23,523 nucleotides of DNA from the IMG/VR virus record IMGVR_UViG_3300027631_000141, positions 1 through 23,523 of that record. One strand, written 5' to 3'. The DNA is from a virus. Shown one piece after another: positions 18,034 through 23,400 of this stretch (the first letter of the stretch is position 1; every line of letters starts with the position of its first letter). The notes below the pieces were generated by a model. The model was not told where the DNA came from and made no database searches. It worked only from the letters and a program-made list of their open reading frames with translations. The position numbers and the translations under genes are program-made.

Positions 18034-18474
18034 GGGGGTGTACTGGTTTTCGATTTATAGTTGAAAACTAAGAGTGCATGTAGAGGATAATAGTTGGCCT
18101 CTTTAAACATCTATTAAAAAAACTAAATGCAGAGGATAACACTTCTGATCTTTTAGCTGAAGCTGAATACATCTTCAACAATGCTGACGAGTTTCTCGCT
18201 GGCGTTGAAGACTACGCACTCGCAGCCTAAGAGCCTAATGCTAGATCCTCTAAAAGCATTTTGAAACGCAGAGGTTTTGATGAACTGTTAGAGATCATAG
18301 AAAAAATAATACAGAGGTAGTATGTGACCTTTCACACATACAGGCAGACTTAAAAAGAAAAGGGTTAATGAGCCAATACAGCCTGTAGTCAACAAATGTA
18401 AAATTCATTAAAGCATGTAGTATCTTTTAGTGGATATTATAGAAACAGGGGTTCGAATCCCCTCACCTCCACCA
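18034..18474 (+). ncRNA. ssrA: tmRNA (transfer-messenger RNA)
   Basis: The 5' end GGGGGTGTACTGGTTTTCGA is the conserved tmRNA start and pairs (GGGGGTG with CACCTCC) with the 3' end ACAGGGGTTCGAATCCCCTC...ACCTCCACCA, which includes the T-arm and an encoded CCA. The tag frame ends at TAA 18228-18230 and encodes ...AGVEDYALAA. The resume codon could be GCA at 18129 (33-residue tag) or GCT at 18156 (24-residue tag), both in the same frame. tmRNA rescues ribosomes stalled on broken mRNAs and marks the product for proteolysis. It needs SmpB, not encoded in this window and perhaps supplied by the host. The molecule is single-piece, about 441 nt, with no permutation. Confidence 0.95.
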
Positions 18475-22204: not shown

Positions 22205-22492
22205 ATGAGAACACTAGACAATATTTTATTAGAAGAGGCGTATTTCAAAATACTAAAAGAAGATGAAAATTTTTCACCTTCAAATACAGAACCACAAGTT
22301 ACTCCAACTGATTTTCAATCTTTAATACGATCTAAGGTAAGTGTTATTTTAAATCAAATACGAGACGTAATAGAAGATACTACAAACGAATTGATAAAAT
22401 CATCCACCGAAGGAGATGTACAAGATATTTCAGATGATGTTGAGCGTGGTATAAAATCAGAAATTGCTAAATATTTGAAAGAATACGTTTGA
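22205..22492 (+). CDS. Leader-bearing protein between tRNAs, 95 aa
   Basis: MRTLDNILLEEAYFKILKED is a clear member of the shared leader family, with LLE as candidate protease site. The rest is acidic and helical (SLIRSKVSVILNQIRDVIED, then SDDVERGIKSEIAKYLKEY) with a Pro/Thr-rich hinge between (SPSNTEPQVTPTD). No known family. It is inserted between the Ser and Tyr tRNA genes and has its own two late-type boxes. A 9-bp palindrome follows. Confidence 0.75.
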   Translation: MRTLDNILLEEAYFKILKEDENFSPSNTEPQVTPTDFQSLIRSKVSVILNQIRDVIEDTTNELIKSSTEGDVQDISDDVERGIKSEIAKYLKEYV

Positions 22493-22625: not shown

Positions 22626-22715
22626 GCCAATGTGACCGGAATTGATAACGGCCCCGATTTGTAATCGGGTATGGAATAATATCCTTTGTGGGTTTGAGTC
22701 CCACCGTTGGCTCCA
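22626..22715 (+). tRNA. tRNA with Thr anticodon (TGT) and long variable arm
   Basis: GCCAATG pairs with CGTTGGC. The anticodon arm is CCCGA-TTTGTAA-TCGGG, anticodon TGT (Thr, ACA). The variable region is 18 nt with a GGA/TCC mini-stem, a class II feature normally limited to Leu, Ser and Tyr in bacteria. The T-loop is TTTGAGT, lacking the usual C at position 56. CCA is encoded. Confidence 0.8.
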
Positions 22716-22721
22716 TTTCAA

Positions 22722-22748
22722 TGTAGAGTAGATCAGTGGTTTATTGCA
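22722..22748 (+). pseudogene. Possible degraded tRNA 5' half
   Basis: TGTAGAG-TA-GATCAGTGGTTTA resembles an acceptor strand, T8-A9 and a D-arm with GG. Only its GAG matches the CTC of the 3' half at 23391. It lies between the last tRNA and the HNH gene. The assignment is weak. Confidence 0.25.
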
Positions 22749-22763
22749 ATGTATTATCGTGTT

Positions 22764-22771
22764 GATAAATA
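22764..22771 (+). promoter_or_regulatory. T4-type late promoter box
   Basis: GATAAATA ends 5 bp before the ATG at 22777, which favours that start over the in-frame ATG at 22744. Confidence 0.6.
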
Positions 22772-22776
22772 TTTTT

Positions 22777-23400
22777 ATGATTATTAAAAGGAATAAAAAA
22801 GAGTGTCCAAAATGTGGATTAAAAATTGCATTATCATCTTTTCGCAGACACGTTAATGGTAAAAGTTGTGGTAAACAATATGAAAAATTTGATGGTAATA
22901 ATTGTGTTTATTGTGATCTTTTAATTTTAAATAAAGGATCTTTACTCGCTCACATGAAATGTTGTAAGAAAAATCCAAATCCGATTAAATGGAATCGATC
23001 CCCAAAAGCTGGTTCTAAAAAAGGACGGGTTGTATGGAACAAAGGTAAAAAATTTGAAAATGAAACAATAGATAGAATTATTCATCAAATTGATTCCGGT
23101 GAATATATGAAATATGGAGAATGTAATATAAGAAAAAAAATTAAAAAATATTTAATTTATAAATACGGACATAAATGTATGATATGTGATTTATCGGAAT
23201 GGCAAGATGTAAAAATACCTTTAGTTTCTGATCATATTGATGGTGATTCTAAAAATAACGAAATCTCAAATTTTAGAATAATTTGCAATAATTGTGATTC
23301 AATATTACCAACATTTAAATCAAAAAACAGAGGAAAGGGTAGAATAAACAGATACAAAATAAACCCGTCGGTCATCGGTTCAAATCCGATCTCAGGCTGA
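22777..23400 (+). CDS. HNH homing-type endonuclease with zinc fingers
   Basis: In this 207-residue protein, two N-terminal zinc-finger-like units (C10-x2-C13 with H25 and C31; C43-x2-C46 with H59 and C62) precede a basic linker containing WNRSPKAGSKKGRVVWNKGK. The HNH core at 134-173 has CMICD, VSDHIDGDSKNNEISNFRII and CNNC: metal-binding Cys pairs, the catalytic His in DHIDGD, and N-x-R. Phage HNH enzymes of this type nick or cut DNA near their insertion site and spread by homing. The last 12 or so codons read through the 3' half of a tRNA, and the stop TGA lies at its very end, so the gene's 3' end was probably captured from the tRNA. Confidence 0.9.
   Translation: MIIKRNKKECPKCGLKIALSSFRRHVNGKSCGKQYEKFDGNNCVYCDLLILNKGSLLAHMKCCKKNPNPIKWNRSPKAGSKKGRVVWNKGKKFENETIDRIIHQIDSGEYMKYGECNIRKKIKKYLIYKYGHKCMICDLSEWQDVKIPLVSDHIDGDSKNNEISNFRIICNNCDSILPTFKSKNRGKGRINRYKINPSVIGSNPISG
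23361..23398 (+). pseudogene. tRNA 3' half fused to the HNH gene
   Basis: AAACCCGTCGGTC looks like an anticodon-stem 3' strand and variable loop. ATCGG-TTCAAAT-CCGAT (23374-23390) is a perfect T-arm and CTCAGGC an acceptor strand. No CCA follows, unlike every intact tRNA here. No matching intact 5' half (GCCTGAG, CGGGT) is seen upstream. Confidence 0.7.

What the first reader, a model, noticed from the sequence alone, without database searches (positions are those of the whole stretch)
22722..23400. HNH endonuclease gene that ends inside a tRNA 3' half
The gene's last dozen codons encode a tRNA variable loop, a perfect T-arm and an acceptor strand, and its stop coincides with the tRNA end. 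A possible weak 5' half lies before the gene. The endonuclease may have inserted into a tRNA anticodon region, destroying it, or this could be the trace of a group I intron. All other tRNAs in the cluster are intact with CCA.
Basis: partly seen in the sequence, partly recalled or inferred. Interest (0 to 1): 0.6.

Follow-up and report, generated by a model that had tools for sequence, protein, structure and literature searches.

The report
Phage endonuclease gene fused into broken tRNA
In an uncultured phage, a selfish DNA-cutting gene of a kind that lives between tRNA genes has run into the middle of a threonine tRNA gene, destroying it and using its remains as the end of its own reading frame; this is an unusual variant of known mobile elements, not a tRNA intron.

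Summary
Window 23360-23398 is the 3' half of a tRNA-Thr(UGU), from anticodon base 36 to the discriminator, identical bar one extra C to the intact tRNA-Thr of two relatives (L011, L012). The HNH reading frame crosses it and stops at its end. In relatives the same HNH (79-81% identical) stops at '...RYKS*' before any tRNA, so the tRNA half is not part of the conserved protein. The proposed 5' half is not established: the match is short, only marginally above chance, and may be HNH leader sequence. No group I intron was found, and no joining of the flanks gives a tRNA. Best reading: a free-standing HNH homing endonuclease of the phage tRNA-cluster type, whose members habitually abut the next tRNA. 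Here its 3' end is fused inside tRNA-Thr, which is lost. Two further loci (L041 clear, L026 weaker) show HNH genes running into orphan tRNA 3' pieces. The endonuclease is under purifying selection (dN/dS about 0.19). The remnant plus a T-run could serve as terminator. A second tRNA-Thr(UGU), with a long variable arm, lies directly upstream and may make the loss tolerable. New variant of a known kind; moderate interest.

The parts
22777..23358 (+). HNH endonuclease coding region homologous to relatives (194 codons: N-terminal zinc-finger-like Cys/His modules, C-terminal HNH with zinc cysteines)
   Evidence: 79-81% identical to L002/L003; invariant H153, D155, N165, C134/C137/C170/C173; PHROG HNH 5e-17; dN/dS 0.094/0.494 vs L002
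23360..23398 (+). 3' half of tRNA-Thr(UGU), position 36 to discriminator, read as the last codons of the HNH ORF
   Evidence: 38 of 39 nt aligned identically, one inserted C, against intact tRNA-Thr of L011/L012
23398..23400 (+). TGA stop of the HNH ORF, overlapping the tRNA discriminator base
   Evidence: same GGCTGATT context in intact L011
23367..23407 (+). terminator-like structure: 12-pair hairpin made from the tRNA half, followed by a T-run
   Evidence: -12.1 kcal/mol, z -3.3 (z only -1.3 for a slightly longer stretch); same hairpin in L011 has no T-run; not flagged by the simple terminator scan
22729..22740 (+). possible remnant of the tRNA 5' half (doubtful)
   Evidence: TAGATCAGTGGT vs TAGCTCAGTGGT; significance depends on anchoring
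22737..22776 (+). HNH leader with T4-type late-promoter-like GATAAATA at 22764-22771
   Evidence: shared with L022 leader; ATAAATA upstream of 6 of 39 ORF starts, 0.6 expected
22626..22715 (+). intact second tRNA-Thr(UGU) with long variable arm, possibly making the broken copy dispensable
   Evidence: ARAGORN/Rfam; 99% identical copy in L036, where no canonical tRNA-Thr and no HNH follow; shares GCC/GGC-T73 ends with other tRNA-Thr

Best explanation
This is a free-standing HNH homing endonuclease gene of the kind that colonises phage tRNA clusters. It carries its own leader, has a late-promoter-like site just before its ATG, and shows no sign of an intron. Its family normally ends a few bases before, or a few bases inside, the 5' end of the next tRNA. 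In this phage the 3' end of the gene is fused to the middle (anticodon loop) of a tRNA-Thr(UGU), so the tRNA's 5' half is lost or decayed and the tRNA is dead. The endonuclease lost its own stop and reads through the tRNA 3' half to a TGA at the tRNA end. The inferred route is a double-strand break in or next to the tRNA, made by the endonuclease itself, then repair from a donor that fused the gene's end to the broken tRNA end; or a later deletion between gene end and tRNA. The 3' half probably persists because it supplies the stop and a hairpin followed by a T-run. The loss is tolerable because another tRNA-Thr(UGU) lies directly upstream. Shown: the fusion, tRNA identity, endonuclease conservation, absence of a spliceable tRNA, recurrence next to tRNAs. 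Inferred: cleavage site, repair route, terminator use, compensation.
For: Intact tRNA-Thr at the corresponding place after tRNA-Tyr in L011/L012. Same HNH with normal end RYKS* in L002-L004. Family survey: in most of the 26 loci tabulated the HNH stop lies between -40 and +6 nt from the next tRNA start, including named phages PEi26, Arash and Smoothie, where it overlaps the tRNA by exactly 10 nt and the stop codon is tRNA positions 8-10. Orphan tRNA 3' pieces follow HNH in L041 (anticodon-loop fusion) and, with a mismatched T-stem, in L026. dN/dS about 0.19. No intron and no spliceable tRNA. tblastn relatives include a T5 tRNA-region HNH and proteins annotated F-TflIV, found near tRNAs. SegB precedent for cutting inside tRNA genes (PMC13096335).
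Against: No cleavage data and no target site. The closest relatives L002-L004 have HNH downstream of an intact tRNA-Thr, not upstream of one, so the order of events is not fixed. Only one contig carries this exact junction, so an assembly chimera cannot be excluded. The empty-site relatives are not near-identical phages, and the second tRNA-Thr(UGU) lies between tRNA-Tyr and the junction in the window but not in them.
Confidence: 0.75

Rival explanations
1. True insertion of the HNH element into the body of tRNA-Thr, with the 5' half (22720-22740) still visible and decayed.
For: TAGATCAGTGGT at the expected distance after the tRNA spacer; anchored p about 0.0006; colinear match including the spacer.
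Against: Unanchored p 0.03-0.17. The sequence from 22737 is HNH leader shared with L022, and L017's leader also has ATCAGT. The 5' acceptor strand is gone while the 3' half is nearly perfect, an asymmetry that needs explaining. In L041 and L026 no 5' half is seen.
Confidence: 0.3
2. Group I (or other self-splicing) intron in tRNA-Thr encoding the HNH protein.
For: HNH proteins are often intron-encoded; the 3' junction lies in the anticodon loop, a classic tRNA intron site (established knowledge).
Against: No intron family in Rfam at E<=10. None of 2800 joins is called a tRNA, against 290 of 441 for a control. The ORF occupies everything up to the tRNA half, leaving no room for a 3' intron core outside it. 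No 5' half to pair with the acceptor strand elsewhere in the window.
Confidence: 0.02
3. Split or trans-spliced tRNA whose 5' half is encoded elsewhere in the phage.
For: The 3' half itself is tRNA-competent: grafted on a 5' half it is called tRNA-Thr(UGU) by ARAGORN. The contig is only a fragment of the genome.
Against: No matching 5' half in the 23.5 kb at up to 3 mismatches; an intact tRNA-Thr(UGU) already exists; the tRNA half is read as part of an ORF.
Confidence: 0.03
4. Assembly chimera joining an HNH contig end with a tRNA-Thr contig.
For: Junction seen in one contig only; tRNA genes are repeats that can mislead assembly.
Against: Flanks are colinear with a tRNA array in the same orientation. 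L041 shows, and L026 suggests, the same kind of junction in other contigs. The GGCTGATT context after the half is natural.
Confidence: 0.07

Closest known systems
F-TflI/II/IV and other HNH endonucleases of the T5 tRNA region
   Same: Free-standing HNH genes between tRNA genes of phages; homologous to this protein by tblastn
   Different: The T5 copy examined does not end inside a tRNA; about 45-49% identity over the HNH core only; different N-terminal module
SegB of T-even phages (GIY-YIG)
   Same: Free-standing homing endonuclease in the tRNA cluster, cuts inside tRNA genes, spreads or amplifies the cluster (PMC13096335; PMC2988022)
   Different: Unrelated nuclease fold; inserted between tRNA genes, tRNAs intact
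mobE of Aeromonas phage Aeh1
   Same: Free-standing HNH homing endonuclease; in Aeh1 it interrupts a ribonucleotide reductase gene (PNAS 2007 title seen; detail from memory)
   Different: The interrupted protein keeps function in pieces; here the tRNA cannot
HNH genes overlapping the 5' end of the next tRNA (Edwardsiella PEi26, Salmonella Arash, Gordonia Smoothie, Streptomyces Jollison)
   Same: HNH ORF runs into the tRNA and takes its stop there
   Different: The tRNA stays whole; overlap 10-15 nt at its 5' end instead of 39 nt of its 3' half

Membership tests
Free-standing HNH homing endonuclease of phages | HNH motif with catalytic His and zinc-binding cysteines | tested here: met
   Invariant H153, D155, N165 and C134, C137, C170, C173 across 14 proteins; PHROG HNH 5e-17; Pfam HNH_3 and HNH hit other members, the window only weakly
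Free-standing HNH homing endonuclease of phages | Not inside an intron or intein | tested here: met
   No intron family at E<=10; no spliceable tRNA
Free-standing HNH homing endonuclease of phages | Sporadic presence at a site that is intact in relatives | tested here: met
   L011, L012 and L037 have intact tRNA-Thr without HNH; L036 has neither
Free-standing HNH homing endonuclease of phages | Site-specific cleavage and biased inheritance (homing) | not testable with these tools
   Needs protein and phage crosses
Phage tRNA-cluster HNH (F-TflIV type) | Location beside phage tRNA genes | tested here: met
   Between tRNA-Thr(UGU) and a tRNA-Thr remnant; sister loci beside tRNAs
tRNA group I intron | Conserved ribozyme core between exons that join to a tRNA | tested here: not met
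Split/trans-spliced tRNA | Both halves present with complementary flanks | tested here: inconclusive
   No 5' half in the fragment; genome incomplete

The most novel reading that the evidence does not exclude
A recurrent kind of element in which a homing endonuclease gene ends in a tRNA gene by design: the tRNA gene is its target and landing site and also supplies its stop codon and transcript end, sometimes at the cost of the tRNA (window, L041, possibly L026), sometimes sharing only its first bases with a living tRNA (PEi26, Arash, Smoothie, L027, L031, L034).
Probability: 0.25. Interest if true: 0.55.

Novelty: new variant of a known kind. Interest (0 to 1): 0.36.

Why it matters
It is a clear case of a free-standing homing endonuclease fused into, and destroying, a tRNA gene, with comparative loci showing the intact state and milder overlaps. 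It makes testable how such genes enter tRNA arrays, whether their cut site is the tRNA itself, and how phages tolerate loss of a tRNA through redundancy. It also warns that the last codons of some annotated phage HNH proteins are tRNA sequence.

Tried and rejected
Group I intron (Rfam at E<=10; exhaustive join test with control). Integrase-like replacement, i.e. the upstream intact tRNA donating the displaced 3' half: rejected, because the orphan acceptor strands do not match the upstream tRNA in the window, L026 or L041 (by eye). tRNA half as conserved HNH C-terminus: rejected by relatives. 5' half by local alignment: weak. Of the six pattern hits, L040, L043, L044 and L045 are tRNA-like coincidences, not HNH. 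Neighbour gene 22205-22492 found no relatives. HNH profile in bacterial genome contigs: none confirmed. PDB sequence search: none; AlphaFold model pLDDT 73, PDB fold matches all E>0.1 with HNH and zinc-finger entries among them. Long-variable-arm tRNA-Thr not found in the phages collection.

Full report
Check of the observation. The window is a 23.5 kb IMG/VR virus fragment. ARAGORN finds five intact tRNAs and a tmRNA, and neither ARAGORN nor Rfam calls a tRNA at 23350-23400. Yet 23360-23398 (TAAACCCGTCGGTCATCGGTTCAAATCCGATCTCAGGCT) is the 3' half of a tRNA-Thr(UGU). It scores 72 against tRNA-Thr 3' halves, with a null mean of 15.5 and maximum of 28. Two other viral contigs carry a 30-nt stretch of it exactly; in both it is the end of an intact tRNA-Thr directly after tRNA-Tyr. 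The HNH ORF passes through it and stops with TGA at 23398-23400. The intact relatives have the same GGCTGATT context, so the stop is simply what follows that tRNA, and the missing CCA is ancestral.

The 5' half. TAGATCAGTGGT at 22729-22740 resembles a tRNA-Thr D-arm. Against all tRNA 5' halves the score is ordinary (p about 0.17), against tRNA-Thr alone marginal (p about 0.03), and only when anchored on the spacer after the previous tRNA is it convincing (p about 0.0006). The sequence from 22737 onward, TGGTTTATTGCAATGTAT...ATAAATATTTTTATG, aligns with the leader of the L022 HNH gene, which has no tRNA there. I treat the 5' half as unproven.

The protein. Relatives L002-L004 (79-81% identical) align with the window from the Met at 22777, and the zinc-cysteine members of the family end shortly after GKGRxxRY. 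The window copy keeps the HNH histidine and zinc cysteines and evolves under constraint (dN 0.094, dS 0.494 against L002). Its tail INPSVIGSNPISG is tRNA sequence and has no counterpart. The gene therefore lost its own stop at the fusion.

The neighbourhood of the family. In the survey the HNH stop often falls within a few bases of the next tRNA or inside its 5' end: +5 L020, +3 L024, -40 L027/L028/L029, -18 L031, -24 L034 (others are further off: +33 L022, +57 L025, +107 L018). In more distant named phages it is +1 (KKP_3262), +3 (Cronus), +6 (ES12, BP32), -10 (PEi26, Arash, Smoothie) and -15 (Jollison, iF6). At -10 the stop codon is formed by tRNA positions 8-10. L041 fuses an HNH gene to an orphan tRNA 3' half at the anticodon loop, with the HNH ATG directly after the CCA of the preceding tRNA. 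L026 has a TTCGAATCC-type T-loop and acceptor-like fragment directly after the HNH stop, but its T-stem is mismatched, so it is weaker. The window is thus an extreme of a habit. This favours fusion of the gene end with a broken tRNA over a clean insertion, but does not settle the order of events: in L002-L004 the gene follows an intact tRNA-Thr.

Not an intron. No Rfam intron at E<=10. Of 2800 ways to join the flanks none gives a tRNA by ARAGORN, while a control tRNA-Thr split by the same ORF is recovered in 290 of 441 joins. No partner 5' half lies in the window.

Expression and retention. GATAAATA at 22764-22771, just before the ATG, fits a T4-type late promoter. ATAAATA lies upstream of 6 of 39 ORF starts where 0.6 is expected. 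L031 and L034 have the promoter-like motif inside a hairpin before the start codon, the layout described for I-TevI, segB and mobE (PMC2988022). The tRNA half with the T-run forms a 12-pair hairpin (-12.1 kcal/mol, z -3.3; without the T-run in L011) and may act as terminator; the simple scan did not flag it.

Tolerance of the loss. The tRNA directly upstream (22626-22715) has anticodon UGU and a long variable arm. It is 99% conserved in L036, which has neither a canonical tRNA-Thr in its 45 kb nor an HNH at this place. It shares GCC/GGC and T73 with the other tRNA-Thr of these phages. Compensation is an inference.

Comparison with known systems. Free-standing HNH endonucleases in phage tRNA regions are known (T5 F-TflI/II/IV, cited in PMC3326045), and SegB is known to cut inside tRNA genes (PMC13096335). 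I found no report of a free-standing endonuclease fused into a tRNA gene, but the paper library is partial and the searches were few. Filed as a new variant of a known kind.

Noticed in passing
L025:2258-2393 (+) and L026:3023-3156 (-): tRNA-Asn-like genes of 134-136 nt whose anticodon loop holds a ~61-63-nt insert that itself folds like a D-armless tRNA (acceptor-like stem and T-arm), with compensatory changes between the two phages; a nested tRNA or tRNA-like intron. Whole unit not found in the phages collection or genome contigs.
   Followed up: partly
window 22626-22715; L036:3710-3799; L010:3866-3948: tRNA-Thr(UGU) with a long (class II) variable arm, 90 nt in the window and L036, intermediate (83 nt) in L010; keeps GCC/GGC-T73 ends of the other phage tRNA-Thr.
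   Followed up: partly
L013, L060, L061, L057 (PEi26, Arash, Smoothie, Jollison): HNH reading frames overlap the 5' end of the next tRNA by 10-15 nt, three of them taking their stop codon from tRNA positions 8-10; RNase P processing would cut the HNH mRNA before its stop.
   Followed up: partly
window 18034-18474; also L011, L036, L023, L025: Phage-encoded tmRNA near the tRNA clusters in these phages.
   Followed up: no
L011:7231-7305: A tRNA-Gly(UCC)-like gene with unusual T-loop (GGCAGTA) and no GG in the D-loop, missed by ARAGORN; read by eye only.
   Followed up: no
window/L002/L003 against L031/L034: The family swaps N-terminal modules: zinc-finger-like Cys/His in some, helix-turn-helix-like in others, with the same HNH core.
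   Followed up: no
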